From the NCBI RefSeq assembly GCF_964204865.1, contig NC_135260.1, positions 1,922,001 through 1,986,000 of the forward strand: a stretch of 64,000 nucleotides of DNA, written 5' to 3'. This document shows positions 1,993-53,518 of the stretch, in pieces; the stretch's first letter is position 1, and each line of letters opens with the position of its first letter. The DNA comes from Styela clava (taxonomy: Eukaryota; Chordata; Ascidiacea; Stolidobranchia; Styelidae). The translations under genes were made by a program, and so were the position numbers. The notes under the pieces were generated by a model. The model saw only the letters and a list, made by a program, of their open reading frames with translations. It had not been told where the DNA came from and ran no database searches.

Positions 1993-2102
1993 GCCTACGA
2001 CCATACCACGTTGAATACACCCGATCTCGTAAGTTAAGCAACGTCGGGCTCGGTTAGTACTTGCATGGGTGACCGGCTGGGAATACCGGGTGCCGTAGGC
2101 TT
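1993..2102 (+). rRNA. 5S rRNA variant, 110 nt, loop C deleted, T subtype (copy 2)
   Basis: Otherwise normal 5S with ccgatctcgtaagtt in place of ccgatctcgttcgatctcggaagtt split across the loop C region, a 10-nt loss. T subtype, meaning T rather than G before aagtt. Ends and internal boxes are intact, so it may be transcribed, but it is probably not a working 5S. Downstream spacer is the first with the tRNA-like segment. Confidence 0.9.
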
Positions 2103-2502
2103 TTCGCTTTTATCAAAAATAAAAGGAATGCTGTCTGAACAAAACATAATTTGAAATGAATATGTTATAAAATATTTCAGATTGTCGAGGACTGAATAAT
2201 AACTAACAGGGGCGAAACGCAACTTTACGAATAGTCACTGAGACCCGTCATCGATATTTCGAATGCGTCTTAATAGGTATAGGCCTACTATATATGGCAG
2301 AATAATCGGTGCTACTATGGAGTGAGTTAGGATATGGGAAATCGAGATAAGACGACTTAATTAATCATATGACGGATTACGGCCAATCGCCCGGTTATCA
2401 GTCAAGGCCAGTTATTTCATTTCGGAAGCAAGCACTTAATGGTAGCGGAAGCCGTAACTTACCTGCGGTAACATGGACTACCTTACGACGACGAAGGGTT
2501 CT

Positions 2503-2632
2503 GAAAACTATCCCTTAATGGAATTCGAACCCACGCAGAGTAATCAGAGGTGTGGTAACGAGCGTATATCTGACACTTAGCACGATGCGCCACACGGTTG
2601 AGCACGAGTTCTACCATAGCTTGAAATCTACC
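2503..2632 (-). repeat. tRNA-like segment, probable fossil SINE head, in every later spacer
   Basis: On the minus strand this reads as an A-box-like tggcgcatcgtg (2592-2581) and a B-box-like ggttcgaattc (2531-2521), about 60 bp apart, followed by a body running towards 2424 (cggaagc end). The layout resembles a tRNA-derived SINE whose tRNA part is too degenerate to fold. It recurs in all spacers after this one, with the B-box-like motif about 505-535 bp 3' of each 5S start (for example 4095, 5676, 7000, 10190, 11480, 13380, 16608, 22418). It is missing from the first two spacers. SINE origin is inferred from the boxes alone. Confidence 0.5.
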
Positions 2633-3307
2633 TATATCTAGTATTACATAGTGAGATCTACGTCAATTCAGTAATTTAGCGCAGGTTCAAAGCCTTCATT
2701 TGCATCCCTAGGAGATATCTCATTAAATTTAGTTAGACTGACTGACTATTAACGTTGATACATTTTTATTGAACCGGACTTAATCGAAAAATTAAACTCT
2801 CGCCAAGTTACGGGCGATCACCGAAGTGCCACGCGCTTGTGAGAGTTTATATATAACTTTTGATACTGTGTGAGTGCACGTAACCTAGCTTTGAGCACAT
2901 ATAAAAAAAAAACAAGCTTATAAGAAGGGCAACTTTCATATATACTGTCGAACTATCTGGGTTATGTGCAATACAATGGGCATCCGCTTATCAAAAAGCT
3001 TTGTCAATAACACGTCAGGCCTCAATAACAAACAAGCAAGTTATATCAGCGACTCGATGCTTGCGTTAAGCCATACACCAGAGATAAAATACCTACGAGG
3101 AAAAACATGCAATCAATAAATTAACGCATGTAATCAATATTAACAAAATTTGACACTGGTAGAAAATGTCGGCGGTAAGCCACTGAGCGAAACAGCGACT
3201 GCCTGAGTTTCATTGTTTGTGACTCTACAAACGAAACAGTTGCGCTTCGCTTCTCTCTCATTAGGCGTTGCCTAAATATAAATAACCGAATATGTCTCGT
3301 CGATATC

Positions 3308-3417
3308 GCCTACGACCATACCACGTTGAATACACCCGATCTCGTAAGTTAAGCAACGTCGGGCTCGGTTAGTACTTGCATGGGTGACCGGCTGGGAATA
3401 CCGGGTGCCGTAGGCTT
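3308..3417 (+). rRNA. 5S rRNA variant, 110 nt, loop C deleted, T subtype (copy 3)
   Basis: Same 10-nt deletion and ctcgtaagtt junction as the copy at 1993. Followed by the spacer with the first retroposon-like insertion, so the next 5S is 1,570 bp on. Confidence 0.9.
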
Positions 3418-3740
3418 TTCGCCTTTATCAAAAATAAAAGAAATGCTGTCTGAACAAAACATAATTTAAAATGAATATGTTATAAAATATTTCAGATTGT
3501 CGAGGACTGAATAATAACTAACAGGGGCGAAACGCAACTTTACGAATAGTCACTGAGACCCGTCATCGATATTTCGAATGCGTCTTAATAGGTATAGGCC
3601 TACTATATATGGCAGAATAATCGTTGCTACTATGGAGTGAGTTAGGATATGGGAAATCGAGATAAGACGACTTAATTAATCATATGACGGATCACGGCCA
3701 ATCGCCCGGTTATCAGTCAAGGCCAGGTATTTCAATTCGG

Positions 3741-3984
3741 CTTCTCAAACCTCTTGTATATAAAACGCCCAGTTGCCGGCGTAAAACCTCAACTCAGTAA
3801 ATACCATCTCACATATAGCGGATGTGATGACAGGAAGCCCACCACTCTACGTGGTATACAAAATGGTGATCTCTATTACAAAGAGAATTGATCCATAAAC
3901 TTCCGTCGGCATAGTCTGGGTATGAAGGCATTTGGGCTGGATTCCAGACTTGTCGTTCTGATCCGTAATAGAAAATAAAAAAAA
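3741..3984 (+). mobile_element. retroposon-like insertion, A-rich tail, target duplication (first copy)
   Basis: A 244-bp block unique to two adjacent spacers. It is flanked by near-identical 12-bp repeats, atttcaattcgg (3729-3740) and atttcatttcgg (3985-3996). Only the second of these occurs at this point in uninserted units, so the pair is a target site duplication. The insert ends in an A-rich tail (aaaataaaaaaaaa), typical of LINE-mobilised sequences. A B-box-like ggctggattcc lies at 3935-3945 and a loose A-box-like tagcggatgtg at 3816-3826, over 100 bp apart. I do not recognise the family; it may be a SINE or a retroposed transcript. A 65-codon minus-strand ORF across it starts in the tail and is not convincing. 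Confidence 0.65.
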
Positions 3985-4877: not shown

Positions 4878-4987
4878 GCCTACGACCATACCACGTTGAA
4901 TACACCCGATCTCGTAAGTTAAGCAACGTCGGGCTCGGTTAGTACTTGCATGGGTGACCGGCTGGGAATACCGGGTGCCGTAGGCTT
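4878..4987 (+). rRNA. 5S rRNA variant, 110 nt, loop C deleted, T subtype (copy 4)
   Basis: Third and last T-subtype copy (ctcgtaagtt). All three are adjacent units, so the subtype spread locally. Downstream spacer carries the second copy of the retroposon-like insertion; next 5S is 1,581 bp on. Confidence 0.9.
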
Positions 4988-6458: not shown

Positions 6459-6578
6459 GCCTACGACCATACCACGTTGAATACACCCGATCTCGTTCGA
6501 TCTCGGAAGTTAAGCAACGTCGGGCTCGGTTAGTACTTGCATGGGTGACCGGCTGGGAATACCGGGTGCCGTAGGCTT
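6459..6578 (+). rRNA. 5S ribosomal RNA, 120-nt form (copy 5)
   Basis: Full-length, loop C region present, helix I intact (gcctac/gtaggc). Spacer downstream has the tRNA-like segment and no retroposon insert; next 5S is 1,324 bp on. Confidence 0.97.
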
Positions 6579-7782: not shown

Positions 7783-7892
7783 GCCTACGACCATACCACG
7801 TTGAATACACCCGATCTCGGAAGTTAAGCAACGTCGGGCTCGGTTAGTACTTGCATGGGTGACCGGCTGGGAATACCGGGTGCCGTAGGCTT
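7783..7892 (+). rRNA. 5S rRNA variant, 110 nt, loop C deleted, G subtype (copy 6)
   Basis: First G-subtype copy: one cgatctcg repeat and the tt between are gone, leaving ccgatctcggaagtt. Keeps gaccat. Followed by the linked spacer markers gctatctaaac and acgacatcg, and by the first L spacer, so the next 5S is 1,883 bp on. Confidence 0.9.
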
Positions 7893-9665: not shown

Positions 9666-9775
9666 GCCTACGACCATACCACGTTGAATACACCCGATCT
9701 CGGAAGTTAAGCAACGTCGGGCTCGGTTAGTACTTGCATGGGTGACCGGCTGGGAATACCGGGTGCCGTAGGCTT
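9666..9775 (+). rRNA. 5S rRNA variant, 110 nt, G subtype with 120-type spacer (copy 7)
   Basis: G-subtype deletion, but followed by the spacer markers normally linked to the 120-nt form (gctgtctgaac, gaatagtcactgag). It is a recombinant between gene and spacer; compare the opposite combination at 55293. Confidence 0.9.
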
Positions 9776-10973: not shown

Positions 10974-11083
10974 GCCTACGATCATACCACGTTGAATACA
11001 CCCGATCTCGGAAGTTAAGCAACGTCGGGCTCGGTTAGTACTTGCATGGGTGACCGGCTGGGAATACCGGGTGCCGTAGGCTT
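10974..11083 (+). rRNA. 5S rRNA variant, 110 nt, G subtype (copy 8)
   Basis: Loop C region deleted; also carries gatcat for gaccat near the 5' end, a C-to-T shared by most G-subtype copies. Followed by linked markers gctatctaaac and acgacatcg, then an L spacer. Confidence 0.9.
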
Positions 11084-12855: not shown

Positions 12856-12975
12856 GCCTACGACCATACCACGTTGAATACACCCGATCTCGTTCGATCT
12901 CGGAAGTTAAGCAACGTCGGGCTCGGTTAGTACTTGCATGGGTGACCGGCTGGGAATACCGGGTGCCGTAAGCTT
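12856..12975 (+). rRNA. 5S rRNA, 120 nt, helix I mismatch (copy 9)
   Basis: Full-length, but the 3' end reads gtaagc instead of gtaggc. This replaces a C-G pair of helix I with C-A. First of five copies with this change (also 20566, 28311, 32803, 40548). Confidence 0.93.
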
Positions 12976-14164: not shown

Positions 14165-14284
14165 GCCTACGACCATACCACGTTGAATACACCCGATCTC
14201 GTTCGATCTCGGAAGTTAAGCAACGTCGGGCTCGGTTAGTACTTGCATGGGTGACCGGCTGGGAATACCGGGTGCCGTAGGCTT
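14165..14284 (+). rRNA. 5S ribosomal RNA, 120-nt form (copy 10)
   Basis: Full-length with intact helix I and loop C region. Its TATA-like box is followed by gacc, the S-junction flank type. An L spacer follows (1,909 bp). Confidence 0.97.
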
Positions 14285-16073: not shown

Positions 16074-16193
16074 GCCTACGACCATACCACGTTGAATACA
16101 CCCGATCTCGTTCGATCTCGGAAGTTAAGCAACGTCGGGCTCGGTTAGTACTTGCATGGGTGACCGGCTGGGAATACCGGGTGCCGTAGGCTT
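16074..16193 (+). rRNA. 5S ribosomal RNA, 120-nt form (copy 11)
   Basis: Full-length with normal gtaggc end. The matching gene one higher-order repeat later (28311) has gtaagc, so the exact 12,237-bp repeat begins after this gene. S spacer follows (1,319 bp). Confidence 0.97.
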
Positions 16194-17392
16194 TTCGCTT
16201 TTATCAAAAATAAAAGGAATGCTGTCTGAACAAAACATAATTTAAAATAAATATGTTATAAAATATTTCAGATTGTTGAGGACTGAATAATAACTAACAG
16301 GGGCGAAACGCAACTTTACGAATAGTCACTGAGACCCGTCATCGATATTTCGAATGCGTCTTAATAGGTATACTATATATGGCAGAATAATCGGTGCCAC
16401 TATAGAGTGAGTTAGGATATGGGAAATCGAGATAAGACGGCTTAATTAATCACATGACGGATCACGGCCAATCGCCCGGTTATCAGTCAAGACGAGTTAT
16501 TTCATTTCGGAAGCATGGAATTAATGGTAGCGGAAGCCGTAACTTACCTGCGGTAACATGGACTACCTTACGACGACGAAGGGTCTAAAAACTATCCCTT
16601 AATGGAATTCGAACCCACGCAGAGTAATCAGAGGTGTGGTAACGAGCGTAAATCTAACACTTAGCACGATGCGCCACACGGTTGAGCATGAGTTTTACCA
16701 TAGCTTGAAATCTACCTATATCTAGTATTACATAGTGCGATCTACGTCAATTCAGTACTTTAGCGCAGGTTCAAAGCCTTCATTTTGCATCCCTAGTAGA
16801 TATCTCATTAAATTTATTTAGACTGACTGACTATTAACGTTGATACATTTTTATTAAACCGGACTTAATCGAAAAATTAAACTCTCGCCAAGTTACGGCC
16901 GATCACCGAAGTGCCACGCGCTTGTGAGAGTTTAAATATAACTTTCGATACTGTGTGAGTGCACGTAACCTAGCTTTGAGCACATATAATAAAAACAAGC
17001 TTATAAGAAGGGCAACTTTCATATATACTGTCGAACTATCTGGGTTATGTGCAATACAATGGGCATCCGCTTATCAAAAAGCTTTGTCAATAACACGTCA
17101 GACCTCAATAACAAACAAGCGAGTTATATCAGCGACTCGATGCTTGCGTTAAGCCATACACCAGAGATAAAATATCTATGAGGAAAAACATGCAATCAAT
17201 AAATTAACGCATGTAACCAATAATAACAAAATTTGACACTGGTAGAAAATGTCGGCGGTAAGCCACTGAGCGAAACAGCGACTGCCTGAGTTTCATTGTT
17301 TGTGACTCTACAAACGAAACAGTTGCGCTTCGCTTCTCTCTCTCATTAGGCGTTGCCTAAATATAAATGACCGAATATGTCTCGTCGATATC

Positions 17393-17502
17393 GCCTACGA
17401 TCATACCACGTTGAATACACCCGATCTCGGAAGTTAAGCAACGTCGGGCTCGGTTAGTACTTGCATGGGTGACCGGCTGGGAATACCGGGTGCCGTAGGC
17501 TT
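17393..17502 (+). rRNA. 5S rRNA variant, 110 nt, G subtype (copy 12)
   Basis: Loop C region deleted, gatcat change present, followed by linked spacer markers and gcgaagcgc for gcgaaacgc. S spacer of the short 1,291-bp class follows. Confidence 0.9.
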
Positions 17503-18683
17503 TTCGCTTTTATCAAAAATAAAAGGAATGCTATCTAAACAAAACATAATTTAAAATAAATATGTTATAAAATATTTCAGATTGTCGAGGACTGAATAAT
17601 TACTAACAGGGGCGAAGCGCAACTTTACGACATCGATATTTCGAATGCGTCTTAATAGGTATACTATATATGGCAGAATAATCGGTGCTACTATAGAGTG
17701 AGTTAGAATATGGGAAATCGGAATAAGACGGCTTAATTAATCACATGACGGATCACGGCCAATCGCCCGGTTATCAGTCAAGGCGAGTTATTTCATTTCG
17801 GAAGCATGGACTTAATGGTAGCGGAAGCCGTAACTTACCTGCGGTAACATGGACTACCTTACGACGACGAAGGGTCTAAAAACTATCCCTTAATGGAATT
17901 CGAACCCACGCAGAGTAATCAGAGGTGTGGTAACGAGCGTAAATCTAACACTTAGCACGATGCGCCACACGGTTGAGCATGAGTTTTACCATAGCTTGAA
18001 ATCTACCTATATCTAGTATTACATAGTGCGATCTACGTCAATTCAGTACTTTAGCGCAGGTTCAAAGCCTTCATTTTGCATCCCTAGTAGATATCTCATT
18101 AAATTTAGTTAGACTGACTGACTATTAACGTTGATACATTTTTATTAAACCGGACTTAATCGAAAAATTAAACTCTCGCCAAGTTACGGCCGATCACCGA
18201 AGTGCCACGCGCTTGTGAGAGTTTATATATAACTTTCGATACTGTGTGAGTGCACGTAACCTAGCTTTGAGCACATATAATAAAAAAAAGCTTATAAGAA
18301 GGGCAACTTTCATATATACTGTCGAACTATCTGGGTTATGTGCAATACAATGGGCATCCGCTTATCAAAAAGCTTTGTCAATAACACGTCAGACCTCAAT
18401 AACAAACAAGCGAGTTATATCAGCGACTCGATGCTTGCGTTAAGCCATACACCAGAGATAAAATATCTATGAGGAAAAACATGCAATCAATAAATTAACG
18501 CATGTAACCAATAATAACAAAATTTGACACTGGTAGAAAATGTCGGCGGTAAGCCACTGAGCGAAACAGCGACTGCCTGAGTTTCATTGTTTGTGACTCT
18601 ACAAACGAAACAGTTGCGCTTCGCTTCTCTCTCTCATTAGGCGTTGCCTAAATATAAATGACCGAATATGTCTCGTCGATATC

Positions 18684-18793
18684 GCCTACGATCATACCAC
18701 GTTGAATACACCCGATCTCGGAAGTTAAGCAACGTCGGGCTCGGTTAGTACTTGCATGGGTGACCGGCTGGGAATACCGGGTGCCGTAGGCTT
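18684..18793 (+). rRNA. 5S rRNA variant, 110 nt, G subtype (copy 13)
   Basis: Same allele as the preceding copy; two successive G-subtype genes here and at 29630/30921 are a signature of the 12.2-kb repeat. L spacer follows (1,882 bp). Confidence 0.9.
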
Positions 18794-19531
18794 TTCGCTT
18801 TTATCAAAAATAAAAGGAATGCTATCTAAACAAAACATAATTTAAAATAAATATGTTATAAAATATTTCAGATTGTCGAGGACTGAATAATTACTAACAG
18901 GGGCGAAGCGCAACTTTACGACATCGATATTTCGAATGCGTCTTAATAGGTATACTATATATGGCAGAATAATCGGTGCTACTATAGAGTGAGTTAGAAT
19001 ATGGGAAATCGGAATAAGACGGCTTAATTAATCACATGACGGATCACGGCCAATCGCCCGGTTATCAGTCAAGGCGAGTTATTTCATTTCGGAAGCATGG
19101 ACTTAATGGTAGCGGAAGCCGTAACTTACCTGCGGTAACATGGACTACCTTACGACGACGAAGGGTCTAAAAACTATCCCTTAATGGAATTCGAACCCAC
19201 GCAGAGTAATCAGAGGTGTGGTAACGAGCGTAAATCTAACACTTAGCACGATGCGCCACACGGTTGAGCATGAGTTTTACCATAGCTTGAAATCTACCTA
19301 TATCTAGTATTACATAGTGCGATCTAGGTCAATTCAGTACTTTAGCGCAGGTTCAAAGTCTTCATTTTGCATCCATAGTAGATATCTCATTAAATTTAGT
19401 TATAAAACATCATTAAATTGTAAATATCCCAGGATTGGAGTTGGTAACTATTTGAACACCTGAGACAGTATATGAGTAAGCGAAATATGGCGTTAGGCCT
19501 CACGCTATAGTTGTACCAGAAATGTCGGGCT

Positions 19532-19637
19532 TGCAATATAATGTTGAATACGCCCGATCAAGAAATATCAACAACATAGGTCCAATTAGTACTTGAATAA
19601 TTAGTGATCAACGTGTAACATAAAGTGCCCCAGTTAC
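19532..19637 (+). pseudogene. decayed 5S rRNA gene in L unit (relic 4)
   Basis: Same relic; its L segment carries private changes (agaccaaat downstream) shared only with the relic at 31769. Confidence 0.78.
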
Positions 19638-20565
19638 GACTTTAACAAGTCATGGCGAGAACCACTAACAAGAGACCAAATTTGGCAATATTGCATTATC
19701 ACTGTTGTCACCGTTACCTCAACCTGTTGTGTCTGGAGTCGTTTTCTTCCATTAACACCGGACACCGGAATATCGGGTTGCTTAATATGTCTCAAAGTCC
19801 GGCTTTTGTTAGTATTTCATGTTTAACTTTTTTCTCAGTATGATGTAATGTAAGACTCACTCCCTCAAAAGTGACGCTGCTCGATATTATTCACTGGTTT
19901 ATCGTGTCTTCATTCACACTGAAATGCGTTTTTTATCTTTTACAATTATATTTGTCCGATGTGTACTTTCGGTTTGTGATAAAATAAACTACAGACTGGC
20001 TGACTATTAACGTTGATACATTTTTATTGAACCGGACTTAATCGAAAAATTAAACTCTCGCCAAGTTACGGGCGATCACCGAAGTGCCACGCGCTTGTGA
20101 GAGTTTATATATAACTTTTGATACTGTGTGAGTGCACGCAACCTAGCTTTGAGCACATTATAATAAAAACAAGCTTATAAGAAGGGCAACTTTCATATAT
20201 ACTGTCGAACTATCTGGGTTATATGTAATACAATGGGCATCCGCTTATCAAAAAAGCTTTGTCAATAACACGTCAGGCCTCAATAACAAACAAGCGAGTT
20301 ATATCAGCGACTCGATGCTTGCGTTAAGCCATACACCAGAGATAAAATACCTATGAGGAAAAACATGCAATCAATAAATTAACGCATGTAACCAATAATA
20401 ACAAAATTTGACACTGGTAGAATATGTCGGCGGTAAGCCACTGAGCGAAACAGCGACTGCCTGAGTTTCATTGTTTGTGACTCTACAAACGAAACGGTTG
20501 CGCTTCGCTTCTCTCTCTTTAGGCGTTGCCTAAATATAAATACCCGAATATGGCTCGTCGATATC

Positions 20566-20685
20566 GCCTACGACCATACCACGTTGAATACACCCGATCT
20601 CGTTCGATCTCGGAAGTTAAGCAACGTCGGGCTCGGTTAGTACTTGCATGGGTGACCGGCTGGGAATACCGGGTGCCGTAAGCTT
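20566..20685 (+). rRNA. 5S rRNA, 120 nt, helix I mismatch (copy 14)
   Basis: Full-length with gtaagc 3' end (C-A mismatch in helix I). S spacer follows (1,319 bp). Confidence 0.93.
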
Positions 20686-21884
20686 TTCGCTTTTATCAAA
20701 AATAAAAGGAATGCTGTCTGAACAAAACATAATTTAAAATAAATATGTTATAAAATATTTCAGATTGTCGAGGACTGAATAATAACTAACAGGGGCGAAA
20801 CGCAACTTTACGAATAGTCACTGAGACCCGTCATCGATATTTCGAATGCGTCTTAATAGGTATACTATATATGGCAGAATAATCGGTGCCACTATAGAGT
20901 GAGTTAGGATATGGGAAATCGAGATAAGACGGCTTAATTAATCACATGACGGATCACGGCCAATCGCCCGGTTATCAGTCAAGGCGAGTTATTTCATTTC
21001 GGAAGCATGGAATTAATGGTAGCGGAAGCCGTAACTTACCTGCGGTAACATGGACTACCTTACGACGACGAAGGGTCTAAAAACTATCCTTTAATGGAAT
21101 TCGAACCCACGCAGAGTAATCAGAGGTGTGGTAACGAGCGTAAATCTAACACTTAGCACGATGCGCCACACGGTTGAGCATGAGTTTTACCATAGCTTGA
21201 AATCTACCTATATCTAGTATTACATAGTGCGATCTACGTCAATTCAGTACTTTAGCGCAGGTTCAAAGCCTTCATTTTGCATCCCTAGTAGATATCTCAT
21301 TAAATTTAGTTAGACTGACTGACTATTAACGTTGATACATTTTTATTAAACCGGACTTAATCGAAAAATTAAACTCTCGCCAAGTTACGGCCGATCACCG
21401 AAGTGCCACGCGCTTGTGAGAGTTTATATATAACTTTCGATACTGTGTGAGTGCACGTAACCTAGCTTTGAGCACATATAATAAAAAAAAGCTTATAAGA
21501 AGGGCAACTTTCATATATACTGTCGAACTATCTGGGTTATGTGCAATACAATGGGCATCCGCTTATCAAAAAGCTTTGTCAATAACACGTCAGACCTCAA
21601 TAACAAACAAGCGAGTTATATCAGCGACTCGATGCTTGCTTTAAGCCATACACCAGAGATAGAATATCTATGAGGAAAAACATGCAATCAATAAATTAAC
21701 GCATGTAACCAATAATAACAAAATTTGACACTGGTAGAAAATGTCGGCGGTAAGCCACTGAGCGAAACAGCGACTGCCTGAGTTTCATTGTTTGTGACTC
21801 TACAAACGAAACAGTTGCGCTTCGCTTCTCTCTCTCATTAGGCGTTGCCTAAATATAAATGACCGAATATGTCTCGTCGATATC

Positions 21885-22004
21885 GCCTACGACCATACCA
21901 CGTTGAATACACCCGATCTCGTTCGATCTCGGAAGTTAAGCAACGTCGGGCTCGGTTAGTACTTGCATGGGTGACCGGCTGGGAATACCGGGTGCCGTAG
22001 GCTT
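21885..22004 (+). rRNA. 5S ribosomal RNA, 120-nt form (copy 15)
   Basis: Full-length and intact. The second downstream T run has lost one T (cgctttatc), a mark shared with copies at 34122 and 41867. L spacer follows (1,908 bp). Confidence 0.97.
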
Positions 22005-22759
22005 TTCGCTTTATCAAAAATAAAAGGAATGCTGTCTGAACAAAACATAATTTAAAATAAATATGTTATAAAATATTTCAGATTGTCGAGGACTGAATAA
22101 TAACTAACAGGGGCGAAACGCAACTTTACGAATAGTCACTGAGACCCGTCATCGATATTTCGAATGCGTCTTAATAGGTATACTATATATGGCAGAATAA
22201 TCGGTGCCACTATAGAGTGAGTTAGAATATGGGAAATCGGAATAAGACGGCTTAATTAATCACATGACGGATCACGGCCAATCGCCCGGTTATCAGTCAA
22301 GGCCAGTTATTTCATTTCGGAAGCATGGACTTAATGGTAGCGGAAGCCGTAACTTACCTGCGGTAACATGGACTACCTTACGACGACGAAGGGTCTAAAA
22401 ACTATCCCTTAATGGAATTCGAACCCACGCAGAGTAATCAGAGGTGTGGTAACGAGCGTAAATCTAACACTTAGCACGATGCGCCACACGGTTGAGCATG
22501 AGTTTTACCATAGCTTGAAATCTACCTATATCTAGTATTACATAGTGCGATCTAGGTCAATTCAGTACTTTAGCGCAGGTTCAAAGCCTTCATTTTGCAT
22601 CCATAGTAGATATCTCATTAAATTTAGTTATAAAACATCATTAAATTGTAAATATCCCAGGATTGGAGTTGGTAACTATTTGAACACCTGAGACAGTATA
22701 TGAGTAAGCGAAATATGGCGTTAGGCCTCACGCTATAGTTGTACCAGAAATGTCGGGCT

Positions 22760-22865
22760 TGCAATATAATGTTGAATACGCCCGATCAAGAAATATCAAC
22801 AACATAGGTCCAATTAGTACTTGAATAATTAGTGATCAACGTGTAACATAAAGTGCCCCAGTTAC
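22760..22865 (+). pseudogene. decayed 5S rRNA gene in L unit (relic 5)
   Basis: Same relic as at 8632-8737, within the L segment between the genes at 21885 and 23793. Confidence 0.78.
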
Positions 22866-23792
22866 GACTTTAACAAGTCATGGCGAGAACCACTAACAAG
22901 AGATCAAATTTGGCAATATTGCATTATCACTGTTGTCACCGTTACCTCAACCTGTTGTGTCTGGAGTCGTTTTCTTCCATTAACACCGGACACCGGAATA
23001 TCGGGTTGCTTAATATGTCTCAAAGTCCGGCTTTTGTTAGTATTTCATGTTTAACTTTTTTCTTAGTATGATGTAATGTGAGACTCACTCCCTCAAAAGT
23101 GACGCTGCTCGATATTATTCACTGGTTTATCGTGTCTTCATTCACACTGAAATGCATTTTTTATCTTTTACAATTATATTTGTCCGATGTGTACTTTCGG
23201 TTTGTGATAAAATAAACTACAGACTGGCTGACTATTAACGTTGATACATTTTTATTGAACCGGACTTAATCGAAAAATTAAACTCTCGCCAAGTTACGGG
23301 CGATCACCGAAGTGCCACGCGCTTGTGAGAGTTTATATATAACTTTTGATACTGTGTGAGTGCACGCAACCTAGCTTTGAGCACATTATAATAAAAACAA
23401 GCTTATAAGAAGGGCAACTTTCATATATACTGTCGAACTATCTGGGTTATATGTAATACAATGGGCATCCGCTTATCAAAAAAGCTTTGTCAATAACACG
23501 TCAGGCCTCAATAACAAACAAGCGAGTTATATCAGCGACTCATGCTTGCGTTAAGCCATACACCAGAGATAAAATACCTATGAGGAAAAACATGCAATCA
23601 ATAAATTAACGCATGTAACCAATAATAACAAAATTTGACACTGGTAGAAAATGTCGGCGGTAAGCCACTGAGCGAAACAGCGACTGCCTGAGTTTCATTG
23701 TTTGTGACTCTACAAACGAAACGGTTGCGCTTCGCTTCTCTCTCTTTAGGCGTTGCCTAAATATAAATACCCGAATATGGCTCGTCGATATC

Positions 23793-23912
23793 GCCTACGA
23801 CCATACCACGTTGAATACACCCGATCTCGTTCGATCTCGGAAGTTAAGCAACGTCGGGCTCGGTTAGTACTTGCATGGGTGACCGGCTGGGAATACCGGG
23901 TGCCGTAGGCTT
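23793..23912 (+). rRNA. 5S ribosomal RNA, 120-nt form (copy 16)
   Basis: Full-length, intact helix I. Downstream spacer has gattgttgagg and taacttagctgcgg, marks of one sub-lineage (also after 25110, 36030, 37347, 43775). S spacer, 1,317 bp. Confidence 0.97.
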
Positions 23913-25109
23913 TTCGCTTTTATCAAAAATAAAAGGAATGCTGTCTGAACAAAACATAATTTAAAATAAATATGTTATAAAATATTTCAGATTGTTGAGG
24001 ACTGAATAATAACTAACAGGGGCGAAACGCAACTTTACGAATAGTCACTGAGACCCGTCATCGATATTTCGAATGCGTCTTAATAGGTATACTATATATG
24101 GCAGAATAATCGGTGCCACTATAGAGTGAGTTAGGATATGGGAAATCGAGATAAGACGGCTTAATTAATCACATGACGGATCACGGCCAATCGCCCGGTT
24201 ATCAGTCAAGGCGAGTTATTTCATTTCGGAAGCATGGAATTAATGGTAGCGGAAGCCGTAACTTAGCTGCGGTAACATGGACTACCTTACGACGACGAAG
24301 GGTCTAAAAACTATCTCTTAATGGAATTCGAACCCACGCAGAGTAATCAGAGGTGTGGTAACGAGCGTAAATCTAACACTTAGCACGATGCGCCACACGG
24401 TTGAGCATGAGTTTTACCATAGCTTGAAATCTACCTATATCTAGTATTACATAGTGCGATCTACGTCAATTCAGTACTTTAGCGCAGGTTCAAAGCCTTC
24501 ATTTTGCATCCCTAGTAGATATCTCATTAAATTTATTTAGACTGACTGACTATTAACGTTGATACATTTTTATTAAACCGGACTTAATCGAAAAATTAAA
24601 CTCTCGCCAAGTTACGGCCGATCACCGAAGTGCCACGCGCTTGTGAGAGTTTAAATATAACTTTCGATACTGTGTGAGTGCACGTAACCTAGCTTTGAGC
24701 ACATATAATAAAAACAAGCTTATAAGAAGGGCAACTTTCATATATACTGTCGAACTATCTGGGTTATGTGCAATACAATGGGCATCCGCTTATCAAAAAG
24801 CTTTGTCAATAACACGTCAGACCTCAATAACAAACAAGCGAGTTATATCAGCGACTCGATGCTTGCGTTAAGCCATACACCAGAGATAAAATATCTATGA
24901 GGAAAAACATGCAATCAATAAATTAACGCATGTAACCAATAATAACAAAATTTGACACTGGTAGAAAATGTCGGCGGTAAGCCACTGAGCGAAACAGCGA
25001 CTGCCTGAGTTTCATTGTTTGTGACTCTACAAACGAAACGGTTGCGCTTCGCTTCTCTCTCTTTAGGCGTTGCCTAAATATAAATACCCGAATATGGCTC
25101 GTCGATATC

Positions 25110-25229
25110 GCCTACGACCATACCACGTTGAATACACCCGATCTCGTTCGATCTCGGAAGTTAAGCAACGTCGGGCTCGGTTAGTACTTGCATGGGTGAC
25201 CGGCTGGGAATACCGGGTGCCGTAGGCTT
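25110..25229 (+). rRNA. 5S ribosomal RNA, 120-nt form (copy 17)
   Basis: Full-length. Its whole unit closely matches the preceding one, including the L-type upstream flank (taaataccc) although the spacer before it is S type. That fits a recent local duplication of a single unit. Confidence 0.97.
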
Positions 25230-26428
25230 TTCGCTTTTATCAAAAATAAAAGGAATGCTGTCTGAACAAAACATAATTTAAAATAAATATGTTATAAAAT
25301 ATTTCAGATTGTTGAGGACTGAATAATAACTAACAGGGGCGAAACGCAACTTTACGAATAGTCACTGAGACCCGTCATCGATATTTCGAATGCGTCTTAA
25401 TAGGTATACTATATATGGCAGAATAATCGGTGCCACTATAGAGTGAGTTAGGATATGGGAAATCGAGATAAGACGGCTTAATTAATCACATGACGGATCA
25501 CGGCCAATCGCCCGGTTATCAGTCAAGGCGAGTTATTTCATTTCGGAAGCATGGAATTAATGGTAGCGGAAGCCGTAACTTAGCTGCGGTAACATGGACT
25601 ACCTTACGACGACGAAGGGTCTAAAAACTATCTCTTAATGGAATTCGAACCCACGCAGAGTAATCAGAGGTGTGGTAACGAGCGTAAATCTAACACTTAG
25701 CACGATGCGCCACACGGTTGAGCATGAGTTTTACCATAGCTTGAAATCTACCTATATCTAGTATTACATAGTGCGATCTACGTCAATTCAGTACTTTAGC
25801 GCAGGTTCAAAGCCTTCATTTTGCATCCCTAGTAGATATCTCATTAAATTTATTTAGACTGACTGACTATTAACGTTGATACATTTTTATTAAACCGGAC
25901 TTAATCGAAAAATTAAACTCTCGCCAAGTTACGGCCGATCACCGAAGTGCCACGCGCTTGTGAGAGTTTAAATATAACTTTCGATACTGTGTGAGTGCAC
26001 GTAACCTAGCTTTGAGCACATATAATAAAAACAAGCTTATAAGAAGGGCAACTTTCATATATACTGTCGAACTATCTGGGTTATGTGCAATACAATGGGC
26101 ATCCGCTTATCAAAAAGCTTTGTCAATAACACGTCAGACCTCAATAACAAACAAGCGAGTTATATCAGCGACTCGATGCTTGCGTTAAGCCATACACCAG
26201 AGATAAAATATCTATGAGGAAAAACATGCAATCAATAAATTAACGCATGTAACCAATAATAACAAAATTTGACACTGGTAGAAAATGTCGGCGGTAAGCC
26301 ACTGAGCGAAACAGCGACTGCCTGAGTTTCATTGTTTGTGACTCTACAAACGAAACAGTTGCGCTTCGCTTCTCTCTCTCATTAGGCGTTGCCTAAATAT
26401 AAATGACCGAATATGTCTCGTCGATATC

Positions 26429-26538
26429 GCCTACGATCATACCACGTTGAATACACCCGATCTCGGAAGTTAAGCAACGTCGGGCTCGGTTAGTACTTGC
26501 ATGGGTGACCGGCTGGGAATACCGGGTGCCGTAGGCTT
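26429..26538 (+). rRNA. 5S rRNA variant, 110 nt, G subtype (copy 18)
   Basis: Loop C region deleted, gatcat change, linked spacer markers present. L spacer follows (1,882 bp). Confidence 0.9.
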
Positions 26539-28430: not shown

Positions 28431-29629
28431 TTCGCTTTTATCAAAAATAAAAGGAATGCTGTCTGAACAAAACATAATTTAAAATAAATATGTTATAAAA
28501 TATTTCAGATTGTCGAGGACTGAATAATAACTAACAGGGGCGAAACGCAACTTTACGAATAGTCACTGAGACCCGTCATCGATATTTCGAATGCGTCTTA
28601 ATAGGTATACTATATATGGCAGAATAATCGGTGCCACTATAGAGTGAGTTAGGATATGGGAAATCGAGATAAGACGGCTTAATTAATCACATGACGGATC
28701 ACGGCCAATCGCCCGGTTATCAGTCAAGACGAGTTATTTCATTTCGGAAGCATGGAATTAATGGTAGCGGAAGCCGTAACTTACCTGCGGTAACATGGAC
28801 TACCTTACGACGACGAAGGGTCTAAAAACTATCCCTTAATGGAATTCGAACCCACGCAGAGTAATCAGAGGTGTGGTAACGAGCGTAAATCTAACACTTA
28901 GCACGATGCGCCACACGGTTGAGCATGAGTTTTACCATAGCTTGAAATCTACCTATATCTAGTATTACATAGTGCGATCTACGTCAATTCAGTACTTTAG
29001 CGCAGGTTCAAAGCCTTCATTTTGCATCCCTAGTAGATATCTCATTAAATTTATTTAGACTGACTGACTATTAACGTTGATACATTTTTATTAAACCGGA
29101 CTTAATCGAAAAATTAAACTCTCGCCAAGTTACGGCCGATCACCGAAGTGCCACGCGCTTGTGAGAGTTTAAATATAACTTTCGATACTGTGTGAGTGCA
29201 CGTAACCTAGCTTTGAGCACATATAATAAAAACAAGCTTATAAGAAGGGCAACTTTCATATATACTGTCGAACTATCTGGGTTATGTGCAATACAATGGG
29301 CATCCGCTTATCAAAAAGCTTTGTCAATAACACGTCAGACCTCAATAACAAACAAGCGAGTTATATCAGCGACTCGATGCTTGCGTTAAGCCATACACCA
29401 GAGATAAAATATCTATGAGGAAAAACATGCAATCAATAAATTAACGCATGTAACCAATAATAACAAAATTTGACACTGGTAGAAAATGTCGGCGGTAAGC
29501 CACTGAGCGAAACAGCGACTGCCTGAGTTTCATTGTTTGTGACTCTACAAACGAAACAGTTGCGCTTCGCTTCTCTCTCTCATTAGGCGTTGCCTAAATA
29601 TAAATGACCGAATATGTCTCGTCGATATC

Positions 29630-29739
29630 GCCTACGATCATACCACGTTGAATACACCCGATCTCGGAAGTTAAGCAACGTCGGGCTCGGTTAGTACTTG
29701 CATGGGTGACCGGCTGGGAATACCGGGTGCCGTAGGCTT
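29630..29739 (+). rRNA. 5S rRNA variant, 110 nt, G subtype (copy 20)
   Basis: Higher-order counterpart of the copy at 17393: same deletion, same gatcat, same gcgaagcgc in the spacer. S spacer, 1,291 bp. Confidence 0.9.
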
Positions 29740-30920: not shown

Positions 30921-31030
30921 GCCTACGATCATACCACGTTGAATACACCCGATCTCGGAAGTTAAGCAACGTCGGGCTCGGTTAGTACTTGCATGGGTGA
31001 CCGGCTGGGAATACCGGGTGCCGTAGGCTT
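30921..31030 (+). rRNA. 5S rRNA variant, 110 nt, G subtype (copy 21)
   Basis: Counterpart of the copy at 18684. L spacer follows (1,882 bp). Confidence 0.9.
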
Positions 31031-32802: not shown

Positions 32803-32922
32803 GCCTACGACCATACCACGTTGAATACACCCGATCTCGTTCGATCTCGGAAGTTAAGCAACGTCGGGCTCGGTTAGTACTTGCATGGGTGACCGGCTGG
32901 GAATACCGGGTGCCGTAAGCTT
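32803..32922 (+). rRNA. 5S rRNA, 120 nt, helix I mismatch (copy 22)
   Basis: Counterpart of the copy at 20566, with gtaagc at the 3' end. Confidence 0.93.
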
Positions 32923-34121: not shown

Positions 34122-34241
34122 GCCTACGACCATACCACGTTGAATACACCCGATCTCGTTCGATCTCGGAAGTTAAGCAACGTCGGGCTCGGTTAGTACT
34201 TGCATGGGTGACCGGCTGGGAATACCGGGTGCCGTAGGCTT
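34122..34241 (+). rRNA. 5S ribosomal RNA, 120-nt form (copy 23)
   Basis: Full-length, counterpart of 21885 including the one-T loss downstream. L spacer, 1,908 bp. Confidence 0.97.
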
Positions 34242-36029: not shown

Positions 36030-36149
36030 GCCTACGACCATACCACGTTGAATACACCCGATCTCGTTCGATCTCGGAAGTTAAGCAACGTCGGGCTCGG
36101 TTAGTACTTGCATGGGTGACCGGCTGGGAATACCGGGTGCCGTAGGCTT
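36030..36149 (+). rRNA. 5S ribosomal RNA, 120-nt form (copy 24)
   Basis: Full-length, counterpart of 23793; spacer with gattgttgagg and cttagctgcgg marks. Confidence 0.97.
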
Positions 36150-37346: not shown

Positions 37347-37466
37347 GCCTACGACCATACCACGTTGAATACACCCGATCTCGTTCGATCTCGGAAGTTA
37401 AGCAACGTCGGGCTCGGTTAGTACTTGCATGGGTGACCGGCTGGGAATACCGGGTGCCGTAGGCTT
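37347..37466 (+). rRNA. 5S ribosomal RNA, 120-nt form (copy 25)
   Basis: Full-length, counterpart of 25110; the duplicated single unit is therefore older than the 12.2-kb duplication. Confidence 0.97.
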
Positions 37467-38665: not shown

Positions 38666-38775
38666 GCCTACGATCATACCACGTTGAATACACCCGATCT
38701 CGGAAGTTAAGCAACGTCGGGCTCGGTTAGTACTTGCATGGGTGACCGGCTGGGAATACCGGGTGCCGTAGGCTT
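38666..38775 (+). rRNA. 5S rRNA variant, 110 nt, G subtype (copy 26)
   Basis: Counterpart of 26429; loop C region deleted, linked spacer markers. L spacer follows. Confidence 0.9.
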
Positions 38776-40547: not shown

Positions 40548-40667
40548 GCCTACGACCATACCACGTTGAATACACCCGATCTCGTTCGATCTCGGAAGTT
40601 AAGCAACGTCGGGCTCGGTTAGTACTTGCATGGGTGACCGGCTGGGAATACCGGGTGCCGTAAGCTT
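40548..40667 (+). rRNA. 5S rRNA, 120 nt, helix I mismatch (copy 27)
   Basis: Last of five copies with gtaagc at the 3' end; it marks the right end of the second 12.2-kb block. S spacer, 1,319 bp. Confidence 0.93.
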
Positions 40668-41866: not shown

Positions 41867-41986
41867 GCCTACGACCATACCACGTTGAATACACCCGATC
41901 TCGTTCGATCTCGGAAGTTAAGCAACGTCGGGCTCGGTTAGTACTTGCATGGGTGACCGGCTGGGAATACCGGGTGCCGTAGGCTT
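41867..41986 (+). rRNA. 5S ribosomal RNA, 120-nt form (copy 28)
   Basis: Full-length, with the one-T loss in the second T run shared with 21885 and 34122. L spacer, 1,908 bp. Confidence 0.97.
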
Positions 41987-43774: not shown

Positions 43775-43894
43775 GCCTACGACCATACCACGTTGAATAC
43801 ACCCGATCTCGTTCGATCTCGGAAGTTAAGCAACGTCGGGCTCGGTTAGTACTTGCATGGGTGACCGGCTGGGAATACCGGGTGCCGTAGGCTT
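43775..43894 (+). rRNA. 5S ribosomal RNA, 120-nt form (copy 29)
   Basis: Full-length, spacer with gattgttgagg and cttagctgcgg marks; S spacer, 1,319 bp. Confidence 0.97.
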
Positions 43895-45093: not shown

Positions 45094-45203
45094 GCCTACG
45101 ATCATACCACGTTGAATACACCCGATCTCGGAAGTTAAGCAACGTCGGGCTCGGTTAGTACTTGCATGGGTGACCGGCTGGGAATACCGGGTGCCGTAGG
45201 CTT
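45094..45203 (+). rRNA. 5S rRNA variant, 110 nt, G subtype (copy 30)
   Basis: Loop C region deleted, gatcat, linked spacer markers. L spacer follows (1,881 bp). Confidence 0.9.
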
Positions 45204-46974: not shown

Positions 46975-47094
46975 GCCTACGACCATACCACGTTGAATAC
47001 ACCCGATCTCGTTCGATCTCGGAAGTTAAGCAACGTCGGGCTCGGTTAGTACTTGCATGGGTGACCGGCTGGGAATACCGGGTGCCGTAGGCTT
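46975..47094 (+). rRNA. 5S ribosomal RNA, 120-nt form (copy 31)
   Basis: Full-length; spacer with gattgttgagg but with normal cttacctgcgg. S spacer, 1,319 bp. Confidence 0.97.
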
Positions 47095-48293: not shown

Positions 48294-48403
48294 GCCTACG
48301 ATCATACCACGTTGAATACACCCGATCTCGGAAGTTAAGCAACGTCGGGCTCGGTTAGTACTTGCATGGGTGACCGGCTGGGAATACCGGGTGCCGTAGG
48401 CTT
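48294..48403 (+). rRNA. 5S rRNA variant, 110 nt, G subtype (copy 32)
   Basis: Loop C region deleted, gatcat, linked spacer markers. Upstream flank has the private acgagacagttg mark. L spacer, 1,884 bp. Confidence 0.9.
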
Positions 48404-50177: not shown

Positions 50178-50297
50178 GCCTACGACCATACCACGTTGAA
50201 TACACCCGATCTCGTTCGATCTCGGAAGTTAAGCAACGTCGGGCTCGGTTAGTACTTGCATGGGTGACCGGCTGGGAATACCGGGTGCCGTAGGCTT
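50178..50297 (+). rRNA. 5S ribosomal RNA, 120-nt form (copy 33)
   Basis: Full-length, with the left-block style gaatatgtctcgtcg flank. Followed by an L spacer (1,909 bp), so two L units are adjacent here. Confidence 0.97.
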
Positions 50298-51053
50298 TTC
50301 GCTTTTATCAAAAATAAAAGGAATGCTGTCTGAACAAAACATAATTTAAAATGAATATGTTATAAAATATTTCAGATTGTCGAGGACTGAATAATAACTA
50401 ACAGGGGCGAAACGCAACTTTACGAATAGTCACTGAGACCCGTCATCGATATTTCGAATGCGTCTTAATAGGTATACTATATATGGCAGAATAATCGGTG
50501 CCACTATAGAGTGAGTTAGAATATGGGAAATCGGAATAAGACGGCTTAATTAATCACATGACGGATCACGGCCAATCGCCCGGTTATCAGTCAAGGCCAG
50601 TTATTTCATTTCGGAAGCATGGACTTAATGGTAGCGGAAGCCTTAACTTACCTGCGGTAACATGGACTACCTTACGACGACGAAGGGTCTAAAAACTATC
50701 CCTTAATGGAATTCGAACCCACGCAGAGTAATCAGAGGTGTGGTAACGAGCGTAAATCTAACACTTAGCACGATGCGCCACACGGTTGAGCATGAGTTTT
50801 ACCATAGCTTGAAATCTACCTATATCTAGTATTACATAGTGCGATCTAGGTCAATTCAGTACTTTAGCGCAGGTTCAAAGCCTTCATTTTGCATCCATAG
50901 TAGATATCTCATTAAATTTAGTTATAAAACATCATTAAATTGTAAATATCCCAGGATTGGAGTTGGTAACTATTTGAACACCTGAGACAGTATATGAGTA
51001 AGCGAAATATGGCGTTAGGCCTCACGCTATAGTTGTACCAGAAATGTCGGGCT

Positions 51054-51159
51054 TGCAATATAATGTTGAATACGCCCGATCAAGAAATATCAACAACATA
51101 GGTCCAATTAGTACTTGAATAATTAGTGATCAACGTGTAACATAAAGTGCCCCAGTTAC
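51054..51159 (+). pseudogene. decayed 5S rRNA gene in L unit (relic 13)
   Basis: Same relic, in the second of two adjacent L units. Confidence 0.78.
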
Positions 51160-52086
51160 GACTTTAACAAGTCATGGCGAGAACCACTAACAAGAGATCA
51201 AATTTGGCAATATTGCATTATCACTGTTGTCACCGTTACCTCAACCTGTTGTGTCTGGAGTCGTTTTCTTCCATTAACACCGGACACCGGAATATCGGGT
51301 TGCTTAATATGTCTCAAAGTCCGGCTTTTGTTAGTATTTCATGTTTAACTTTTTTCTTAGTATGATGTAATGTGAGACTCACTCCCTCAAAAGTGACGCT
51401 GCTCGATATTATTCACTGGTTTATCGTGTCTTCATTCACACTGAAATGCATTTTTTATCTTTTACAATTATATTTGTCCGATGTGTACTTTCGGTTTGTG
51501 ATAAAATAAACTACAGACTGGCTGACTATTAACGTTGATACATTTTTATTGAACCGGACTTAATCGAAAAATTAAACTCTCGCCAAGTTACGGGCGATCA
51601 CCGAAGTGCCACGCGCTTGTGAGAGTTTATATATAACTTTTGATACTGTGTGAGTGCACGCAACCTAGCTTTGAGCACATTATAATAAAAACAAGCTTAT
51701 AAGAAGGGCAACTTTCATATATACTGTCGAACTATCTGGGTTATATGTAATACAATGGGCATCCGCTTATCAAAAAAGCTTTGTCAATAACACGTCAGGC
51801 CTCAATAACAAACAAGCGAGTTATATCAGCGACTCATGCTTGCGTTAAGCCATACACCAGAGATAAAATACCTATGAGGAAAAACATGCAATCAATAAAT
51901 TAACGCATGTAACCAATAATAACAAAATTTGACACTGGTAGAAAATGTCGGCGGTAAGCCACTGAGCGAAACAGCGACTGCCTGAGTTTCATTGTTTGTG
52001 ACTCTACAAACGAAACGGTTGCGCTTCGCTTCTCTCTCTTTAGGCGTTGCCTAAATATAAATACCCGAATATGGCTCGTCGATATC

Positions 52087-52206
52087 GCCTACGACCATAC
52101 CACGTTGAATACACCCGATCTCGTTCGATCTCGGAAGTTAAGCAACGTCGGGCTCGGTTAGTACTTGCATGGGTGACCGGCTGGGAATACCGGGTGCCGT
52201 AGGCTT
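52087..52206 (+). rRNA. 5S ribosomal RNA, 120-nt form (copy 34)
   Basis: Full-length; S spacer of 1,322 bp, 3 bp longer than usual because of ttcatagtc for tacgtc near 52,757. Confidence 0.97.
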
Positions 52207-53408
52207 TTCGCTTTTATCAAAAATAAAAGGAATGCTGTCTGAACAAAACATAATTTAAAATAAATATGTTATAAAATATTTCAGATTGTTGAGGACTGAA
52301 TAATAACTAACAGGGGCGAAACGCAACTTTACGAATAGTCACTGAGACCCGTCATCGATATTTCGAATGCGTCTTAATAGGTATACTATATACGGCAGAA
52401 TAATCGGTGCCACTATAGAGTGAGTTAGGATATGGGAAATCGAGATAAGACGGCTTAATTAATCACATGACGGATCACGGCCAATCGCCCGGTTATCAGT
52501 CAAGGCGAGTTATTTCATTTCGGAAGCATGGAATTAATGGTAGCGGAAGCCGTAACTTACCTGCGGTAACATGGACTACCTTACGACGACGAAGGGTCTA
52601 AAAACTATCCCTTAATGGAATTCGAACCCACGCAGAGTAATCAGAGGTGTGGTAACGAGCGTAAATCTAACACTTAGCACGATGCGCCACACGGTTGAGC
52701 ATAAGTTTTACCATAGCTTGAAATCTACCTATATCTAGTATTACATAGTGCGATCTTCATAGTCAATTCAGTACTTTAGCGCAGGTTCAAAGCCTTCATT
52801 TTGCATCCCTAGTAGATATCTCATTAAATTTATTTAGACTGACTGACTATTAACGTTGATACATTTTTATTAAACCGGACTTAATCGAAAAATTAAACTC
52901 TCGCCAAGTTACGGCCGATCACCGAAGTGCCACGCGCTTGTGAGAGTTTAAATATAACTTTCGATACTGTGTGAGTGCACGTAACCTAGCTTTGAGCACA
53001 TATAATAAAAACAAGCTTATAAGAAGGGCAACTTTCATATATACTGTCGAACTATCTGGGTTATGTGCAATACAATGGGCATCCGCTTATCAAAAAGCTT
53101 TGTCAATAACACGTCAGACCTCAATAACAAACAAGCGAGTTATATCAGCGACTCGATGCTTGCGTTAAGCCATACACCAGAGATAAAATATCTATGAGGA
53201 AAAACATGCAATCAATAAATTAACGCATGTAACCAATAATAACAAAATTTGACACTGGTAGAAAATGTCGGCGGTAAGCCACTGAGCGAAACAGCGACTG
53301 CCTGAGTTTCATTGTTTGTGACTCTACAAACGAGACAGTTGCGCTTCGCTTCTCTCTCTCATTAGGCGTTGCCTAAATATAAATGACCGAATATGTCTCG
53401 TCGATATC

Positions 53409-53518
53409 GCCTACGATCATACCACGTTGAATACACCCGATCTCGGAAGTTAAGCAACGTCGGGCTCGGTTAGTACTTGCATGGGTGACCGGCTGGGAAT
53501 ACCGGGTGCCGTAGGCTT
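53409..53518 (+). rRNA. 5S rRNA variant, 110 nt, G subtype (copy 35)
   Basis: Counterpart of 48294, the last 110-nt copy. L spacer follows (1,884 bp). Confidence 0.9.

What the first reader, a model, noticed from the sequence alone, without database searches (positions are those of the whole stretch)
1993..53518. Fifteen of 36 5S genes lack the same 10 bp, removing loop C
Copies at 1993, 3308, 4878, 7783, 9666, 10974, 17393, 18684, 26429, 29630, 30921, 38666, 45094, 48294 and 53409 are 110 nt. The intact form has two cgatctcg repeats separated by tt; the short form keeps one, as expected from slippage or end-joining between direct repeats. In the standard 5S fold the lost bases are loop C, next to helix III, a contact area for ribosomal proteins uL5/uL18. 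A defective allele at about 40 percent of the array, spread by conversion, is striking. These are either tolerated pseudogenes or a stable second 5S form. Promoter, internal boxes and terminator look intact.
Basis: partly seen in the sequence, partly recalled or inferred. Interest (0 to 1): 0.75.

Follow-up and report, generated by a model that had tools for sequence, protein, structure and literature searches.

The report
Recurrent 10-bp deletion in 5S genes
Many copies of one organism's 5S ribosomal RNA gene have lost the same ten bases, probably because a built-in repeat lets them slip out again and again, and these probably useless copies then multiply along with the rest of the gene array.

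Summary
All 36 5S genes are Rfam 5S; 15 lack 10 bp (108 nt against 118, not 110). They are not one allele: 12 have junction CTCG|GAAG, 3 have CTCG|TAAG. A 12.4-kb letter-identical repeat holds three of the short copies twice (recent duplication or assembly effect). The deletion takes loop C and the tip of helix III; in the 12 G-junction copies a 3-bp helix III with an AUCU loop is still predicted.

The genome changes the reading. In 314 kb of this array 50 of 186 full-length copies are short, very unevenly spread. A second 5S family (about 200-bp units, other contigs) has the same deletion in 27 of 94 copies in two stretches chosen for having it, always on its own marker bases. A decayed 5S relic in the spacers also fits the short form better. 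So the deletion recurs, or is old; it is not one allele spread by conversion.

Best explanation: repeat-mediated deletion at a 10-bp imperfect tandem repeat inside the gene, then amplification with its unit; the products are most likely pseudogene alleles. Expression is untested. A published fish 5S clone with a 10-bp deletion shrinking loop C is a precedent. New member of a known kind.

The parts
795..913 (+). 5S gene, 118 nt (I1)
1993..2101 (+). short 5S, T junction (dT)
3308..3416 (+). short 5S, T junction (dT)
4878..4986 (+). short 5S, T junction (dT)
6459..6577 (+). 5S gene, 118 nt (I1)
7783..7891 (+). short 5S, G junction (dG); left flank type U1, right flank type D3
9666..9774 (+). short 5S, G junction (dG); flanks U2 and D2
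10974..11082 (+). short 5S, G junction with C9T (dGt)
12856..12974 (+). 5S gene, 118 nt with G116A (I2)
14165..14283 (+). 5S gene, 118 nt (I1)
16074..16192 (+). 5S gene, 118 nt (I1)
17393..17501 (+). short 5S, dGt
18684..18792 (+). short 5S, dGt
20566..20684 (+). 5S gene, 118 nt with G116A (I2)
21885..22003 (+). 5S gene, 118 nt (I1)
23793..23911 (+). 5S gene, 118 nt (I1)
25110..25228 (+). 5S gene, 118 nt (I1)
26429..26537 (+). short 5S, dGt
28311..28429 (+). 5S gene, 118 nt with G116A (I2)
29630..29738 (+). short 5S, dGt, exact duplicate block of 17393
30921..31029 (+). short 5S, dGt, exact duplicate block of 18684
32803..32921 (+). 5S gene, 118 nt with G116A (I2)
34122..34240 (+). 5S gene, 118 nt (I1)
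36030..36148 (+). 5S gene, 118 nt (I1)
37347..37465 (+). 5S gene, 118 nt (I1)
38666..38774 (+). short 5S, dGt, exact duplicate block of 26429
40548..40666 (+). 5S gene, 118 nt with G116A (I2)
41867..41985 (+). 5S gene, 118 nt (I1)
43775..43893 (+). 5S gene, 118 nt (I1)
45094..45202 (+). short 5S, dGt
46975..47093 (+). 5S gene, 118 nt (I1)
48294..48402 (+). short 5S, dGt
50178..50296 (+). 5S gene, 118 nt (I1)
52087..52205 (+). 5S gene, 118 nt (I1)
53409..53517 (+). short 5S, dGt
55293..55411 (+). last 5S gene found in the window, 118 nt (I1); flanks U2 and D3
16278..28701 (.). 12,424-bp stretch repeated letter for letter at 28515-40938 (offset 12,237)
   Evidence: the only other exact repeat of 3 kb or more in 314 kb is 3,038 bp
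56155..56241 (+). decayed 5S relic inside a spacer insert of about 580 bp; fits the short form without the 10-nt gap. The same relic lies in 15 window spacers (core motif at 8643, 11833, 15052, 19543, 22771, 27288, 31780, 35008, 39525, 42753, 45953, 49153, 51065, 54268, 56162)

Best explanation
The 5S gene of this genome carries a 10-bp imperfect tandem repeat, CGATCTCGTT CGATCTCGGA, which spans the tip of helix III and loop C. Misalignment of the two units during replication or recombination deletes one unit: a switch inside the identical 8 bp gives the G junction, and a switch one base further on gives the T junction (mechanism inferred from the sequence). This has most likely happened repeatedly: there are different junctions and the deletion occurs in two 5S gene families. 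Copies with the deletion then multiplied mainly together with their flanks, by duplication or unequal crossing-over, with some exchange inside or near the gene. The RNA they could make keeps helices I, II, IV and V but loses loop C and most of helix III, the L5 (uL18) binding site, so the copies are most likely pseudogene alleles carried by redundancy (inferred; no expression data). Shown: the alleles, counts, positions, flank types and predicted folds. Inferred: slippage, the number of origins, loss of function. Not explained: why a central stretch of the array is poor in short copies.
For: 36 Rfam 5S genes, 15 short at the stated places; five alleles, two junctions. 314 kb of the same array: 186 full-length copies, 135 of 118 nt, 50 of 108 nt, 1 of 124 nt, two fragments left out; junction base G 26, T 23, A 1 of 50. 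One exact short-form pattern occurs at 203 places in the genome (89 plus, 114 minus strand; reversed-pattern control 0); the capped listing shows C1, C14, C17, C18 and C19. In 10 kb each of C18 and C19, chosen because short matches cluster there, a second 5S family with units near 200 bp has the deletion in 17 of 44 and 10 of 50 full-length copies, two fragments left out; all 27 short and all 54 118-nt copies there carry G25 and T60, which flank the deletion (the 117- and 99-nt copies were not checked). In the window 10 of 15 short copies have flank types U3-D3 and 3 have U1-D1, typed by eye from the table. Folds: 118-nt form -43.5, G junction -41.1 with helix III cut to CCG/CGG plus AUCU, T junction -36.8 with 2 bp left. 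L5 binding through loop C/stem III: passages of PMC3409183.
Against: The rest of the short gene is not visibly decaying: outside positions 29-48, 7 of 98 sites vary among 50 short copies against 21 of 120 downstream (Fisher p 0.026), while the 118-nt copies have 20 of 98 against 35 of 116 (p 0.12); a pseudogene class might have looked more relaxed. Recent origin and conversion could explain it. G-junction forms fold well (z -2.0 and -2.2). Recurrence is not proven: a polymorphism older than the two families, or conversion tracts under about 34 bp, would give the same pattern, and exchange near the gene has plainly occurred (all four combinations of deletion with D2/D3 flanks). A simple picture of defects piling up in messy array ends does not hold: the left stretch has 21 of 31 short copies although its flanks (median 1 substitution from consensus) and unit lengths (26 of 31 within 1300-1340 bp) are about as regular as those of the central stretch (medians 1.5 and 2; 104 of 109), where 10 of 109 are short; only the right end is diverged (median 7; 21 of 45), with 19 of 46 short.
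Confidence: 0.75

Rival explanations
1. A stable second 5S RNA: the short gene is transcribed and does something, in ribosomes or outside them, with a miniature helix III (3 bp, AUCU loop) in place of loop C.
For: Upstream element, internal control region and T-run present in 36 of 36 window copies; short gene bodies no less conserved than 118-nt ones; the G-junction fold keeps the other helices; present in two 5S families and many copies.
Against: Loop C/helix III is the L5 site (PMC3409183 passages). T-junction copies (23 of 50 short ones, 13 of them also with C29T and C30A) weaken or lose the residual stem in the predicted folds yet are amplified too, which is hard to square with selection on that structure. 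Absent from a run of 55 consecutive copies.
Confidence: 0.06
2. One deletion event, old, predating the split of the two 5S families or spread between them by short conversion tracts, with the T and A junctions made later by point mutation.
For: The decayed spacer relic fits the short length, and the 11 of 186 5S genes that its insert matches at E 0.001 are all short, so the short form has some age. Recombinant flanks around 7783, 9666 and 55293 show exchange near the gene.
Against: 27 of 27 short copies sampled in the second family carry its own bases on both sides of the deletion; A55G, close to the junction, occurs with both forms (34 of 135 long, 9 of 50 short); the T junction is exactly what a one-base-later switch gives.
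Confidence: 0.17
3. Assembly or consensus artefact: collapsed or wrongly duplicated units create or multiply the short form.
For: A 12,424-bp letter-identical tandem repeat in the window is a lone outlier; the next exact repeat in 314 kb is 3,038 bp.
Against: The deletion occurs with different flanks and three junction bases, in two families and on several contigs, which copying one error would not give. Removing the duplicate block leaves 12 of 28.
Confidence: 0.03

Closest known systems
Plectorhinchus mediterraneus 5S rDNA gamma-prime form (PMC3464664, passages seen)
   Same: A 10-bp deletion in the 5S coding region that makes loop C smaller; its authors wrote that it could be a non-functional gene.
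   Different: A deleted clone of one type there; here 50 of 186 genes in one array, 27 of 94 in two chosen stretches of a second family, several junctions, with flank context. The deleted letters of the fish clone were not compared.
Xenopus laevis 5S pseudogene (Jacq 1977; seen only as mentioned in an abstract in the listing, details recalled)
   Same: Defective 5S copies amplified inside a 5S array. The spacer relic here resembles it in layout: a decayed 5S beside the gene in a repeated unit.
   Different: The Xenopus pseudogene is an extra copy beside the gene in the unit; here the deletion is in the main gene of the unit.
5S variants under birth-and-death evolution (Pollicipes PMC3215682, passages; Esox PMC5437419, passages)
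   Same: Several 5S types or truncated copies in one genome (Pollicipes) and higher-order repeat structure (Esox).
   Different: [quoted passage not shown] Esox amplification was reported without significant pseudogenisation. The passages seen do not describe this deletion.
Reduced mitochondrial 5S rRNA of Polytomella (PMC9576764, passages)
   Same: Shows that a working ribosome can hold a 5S with a truncated domain beta (lacking H2 and H3).
   Different: Mitochondrial, also lacks domain alpha, held by uL18m, bL25m and mL40; here nuclear-type arrays with helices I and II kept.

Membership tests
5S rRNA gene (Rfam RF00001) | covariance-model score above gathering | tested here: met
   36 of 36 in the window; short copies 84.9-90.3 bits against a cut-off of 38
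Functional eukaryotic 5S rRNA gene | loop C and helix III (L5 binding site) | tested here: not met
   Short form: helix III predicted as 3 bp with AUCU loop (G junction) or 2 bp (T junction); loop C absent. Prediction only, no binding test
Functional eukaryotic 5S rRNA gene | upstream element, internal promoter region, T-run terminator | tested here: met
   36 of 36 each, by exact motif; the role of these motifs in this species is assumed
Functional eukaryotic 5S rRNA gene | transcribed and found in ribosomes | not testable with these tools
   No RNA data
5S pseudogene | lesion in a required part | tested here: met
   10-bp loss at helix III/loop C
5S pseudogene | relaxed constraint in the remaining sequence | tested here: inconclusive
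   Short 7 of 98 variable sites against 21 of 120 downstream; 118-nt form 20 of 98 against 35 of 116: no sign of relaxation, but origin may be recent
Repeat-mediated deletion | loss of one unit between direct repeats, one copy kept | tested here: met
   CGATCTCGTT/CGATCTCGGA; 26 of 50 exact one-unit product, 23 of 50 the product of a switch one base later, 1 of 50 with A

The most novel reading that the evidence does not exclude
The short 5S is a real second RNA class: in both 5S families the 10-bp repeat works as a switch that keeps producing a 5S without the L5/uL18 site, with its promoter and other helices kept. Such an RNA could still be made and bound by TFIIIA, yet be unable to enter the 5S RNP, and so act as a storage or decoy 5S.
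Probability: 0.05. Interest if true: 0.8.

Novelty: new member of a known kind. Interest (0 to 1): 0.4.

Why it matters
Defective 5S alleles are known, but here the same 10-bp loss turns up in two 5S families of one genome and makes up over a quarter of the copies read in a long array. That gives a countable natural test of how an array tolerates and spreads defective ribosomal genes, and of whether a 5S without loop C can be used at all. It also warns that 5S copy numbers from assemblies may overstate working genes.

Tried and rejected
Slippage between exact repeats as the single cause for all 15: rejected, since three copies have another junction. One allele spread by conversion: rejected as the main route, since 13 of 15 short copies lie on two flank-type combinations. 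Random order of short and long copies: not rejected in the window (19 runs, mean 18.5 in shuffles), rejected over 314 kb. Decay at array ends as the reason for that clustering: not borne out, since the left stretch is short-rich but as regular as the centre. Flank trees gave at least 16 (upstream) and 13 (downstream) changes between short and other states on 156 rows, 30 of them short; no shuffle control was run and recombination makes them unsafe as counts of origins. The left/centre/right boundaries were set, so that Fisher p (1e-10) is post hoc. The upstream flank was left out of the constraint comparison: among short copies it has 85 of 198 variable sites, 70 of them singletons (118-nt copies 59 of 200), probably swollen by two units whose upstream sequence is far from all others (1901676 and 1908729).

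A genome-wide count of the 118-nt form was never obtained, so no genome-wide ratio is given. Paper searches: (9 of 10 allowed); passages only were read of PMC3464664, PMC9576764, PMC3215682, PMC5437419 and PMC3409183; other papers were seen as listings only.
Full report
CHECK. Rfam finds 36 5S genes in the window, all on the + strand and all well above the gathering score. Fifteen, at exactly the listed starts, are 10 nt shorter. There are five alleles: 118 nt (I1) 16 copies; 118 nt with G116A (I2) 5 copies; 108 nt, G junction plus C9T (dGt) 10 copies; 108 nt, G junction (dG) 2 copies (7783, 9666); 108 nt, T junction (dT) 3 copies (1993, 3308, 4878).

THE REPEAT. The 118-nt gene reads CGATCTCGTT CGATCTCGGA AG: two 10-mers alike at 8 of 10 bases. 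Dropping one unit gives CGATCTCG followed by GAAG (12 of 15 copies); switching one base later gives CGATCTCGT followed by AAG (3 of 15). Both are 10-bp, in-register products; the dT form could also be dG plus a point change.

STRUCTURE. On the Rfam structure the lost bases are loop C and the distal part of helix III (read by eye). RNAfold gives -43.5 kcal/mol for I1, -36.9 for I2 (a helix I mismatch), -41.1 for both G-junction forms and -36.8 for the T form. In the G forms helix III survives as CCG/CGG closed by AUCU; in the T form 2 bp remain. The short G form is thus predicted more stable than the full-length I2 allele. L5 binds 5S through loop C/stem III (passages of PMC3409183), so a working short form would have to do without that site.

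SPREAD WITHIN THE WINDOW. Markers on either side, typed by eye, give upstream types U1-U3 and downstream types D1-D3. All ten dGt copies are U3-D3; all three dT are U1-D1; 7783 is U1-D3 and 9666 is U2-D2; the full-length 55293 is U2-D3. Most of the spread is therefore amplification together with the flanks, with a few exchanges in or near the gene. One 12,424-bp stretch is repeated letter for letter at an offset of 12,237; it supplies three short and five long copies twice. It stands out from the rest, where the next exact repeat is 3,038 bp, and may be a very recent duplication or an assembly effect.

THE WIDER ARRAY. The genome is held unnamed, 376.6 Mb in 379 contigs, with the window at C14:1922001-1986000. 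I read 250 kb more to the left, giving 314 kb in all. It holds 186 full-length 5S genes, plus two fragments left out of the counts: 135 of 118 nt, 50 of 108 nt, 1 of 124 nt. Junction bases of the 50 are G 26, T 23, A 1; 9 of the 50 carry A55G, as do 34 of the 135 long ones. Short copies are unevenly spread: 21 of 31 at the left (to 1,725 kb), 10 of 109 in the middle, 19 of 46 at the right (from 1,890 kb); 55 consecutive unshortened copies (the 124-nt one among them) form one run, not reached in 5000 shuffles. This is not simple decay at an array end: the left stretch is as regular in flanks and spacing as the middle, and the array goes on further left, to at least 1,610 kb, with 20 more exact short-form matches between 1,610 and 1,666 kb.

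A SECOND 5S FAMILY. An exact pattern for the short form occurs at 203 places in the genome, reversed-pattern control 0; it misses the A-junction, A55G and C29T/C30A forms. Ten kb each of C18 and C19, picked because matches cluster there, show another 5S family with units near 200 bp, again Rfam 5S (95 matches). Of 94 full-length genes there (two fragments left out), 54 are 118 nt, 27 are 108 nt, 12 are 117 nt and 1 is 99 nt; because of how the stretches were picked this is not a rate for the family. All 27 short ones have this family's G25 and T60, which flank the deletion, and their junctions are G 21, A 4, T 2. The deletion therefore arose again in this family, or is older than the split, or moved in by tracts shorter than about 34 bp. 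I think the first most likely.

A RELIC. Fifteen window spacers (17 inserts in 314 kb) carry an insert of about 580 bp that holds a decayed 5S. It aligns to the short gene at 43.5 against 30.0 for the 118-nt gene, with a maximum of 27.0 in 30 shuffles of the tail; by profile 12.5 bits against 7.0. Among simulated deletions of 0-20 nt the 15 best scores are all losses of 10 or 11 nt starting after base 29-44. The insert matches 11 of the 186 5S genes at E 0.001, weakly (2e-4 to 1e-3), and all 11 are short. The short form is therefore probably not brand new.

CONSTRAINT. Outside positions 29-48, 7 of 98 sites vary among 50 short copies against 21 of 120 downstream (p 0.026); for 135 long copies 20 of 98 against 35 of 116 (p 0.12). 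In the window alone the short copies have 1 of 99 variable sites against 59 of 828 in flanks (p 0.015), the long ones 1 of 99 against 50 of 825 (p 0.034), the G-junction copies alone 1 of 99 against 41 of 828 (p 0.076). The short genes are not visibly decaying. This fits recent origin and exchange with long copies, but it also keeps the functional rival alive. Against that rival, the T junction (23 of 50 short copies, 13 of them also with C29T/C30A) weakens or loses the residual stem and is amplified all the same.

VERDICT. A real, probably recurrent, repeat-mediated deletion that makes 5S alleles without loop C, amplified with their units; most likely pseudogenes. A fish 5S clone with a 10-bp deletion that shrinks loop C is in print (PMC3464664, passages). 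The scale, the two families and the relic are what seems new; I saw no report of that in the listings, which cover open-licence papers only.

Noticed in passing
12856, 20566, 28311, 32803, 40548: Five full-length 5S copies carry G116A, which breaks a helix I pair and lowers predicted stability to -36.9 kcal/mol, below the short G-junction form.
   Followed up: partly
L034 (C18:996001-1006000), L035 (C19:7502001-7512000): A second 5S family with units near 200 bp, five consensus differences by eye, many alleles (27 distinct of 44 and 24 of 50), including a 117-nt form and one 99-nt form with a larger loss in the same arm.
   Followed up: partly
window 16278-28701 and 28515-40938: Letter-identical 12.4-kb tandem repeat, an outlier in the array: a very recent duplication or an assembly effect.
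   Followed up: partly
G000:C14:1725000-1890000: A stretch of 109 copies with only 10 short ones, between short-rich stretches; the left neighbour is as regular in flanks and spacing, so the reason is open.
   Followed up: partly
window 3308-6458 units and spacers such as 2500-2630: Spacers hold a tRNA-like stretch on the minus strand (possibly SINE-derived, by eye; ARAGORN finds no tRNA), and the units at 3308 and 4878 hold a further insert of about 256 bp.
   Followed up: no
window 59684-60868: Element with terminal inverted repeats CAGTGGTCGGCAACC and an 8-bp target duplication GTCTAGAT, resembling a hAT transposon (family name recalled).
   Followed up: partly
window 63496-63999 (-): Open frame with a GIY-YIG domain (Pfam PF01541, E 1.6e-05), perhaps the end of a Penelope-like element (recalled).
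   Followed up: partly
G000:C14:1773723: One 5S copy of 124 nt with a 6-bp insertion in the 5' part, the only lengthened copy among 186.
   Followed up: no
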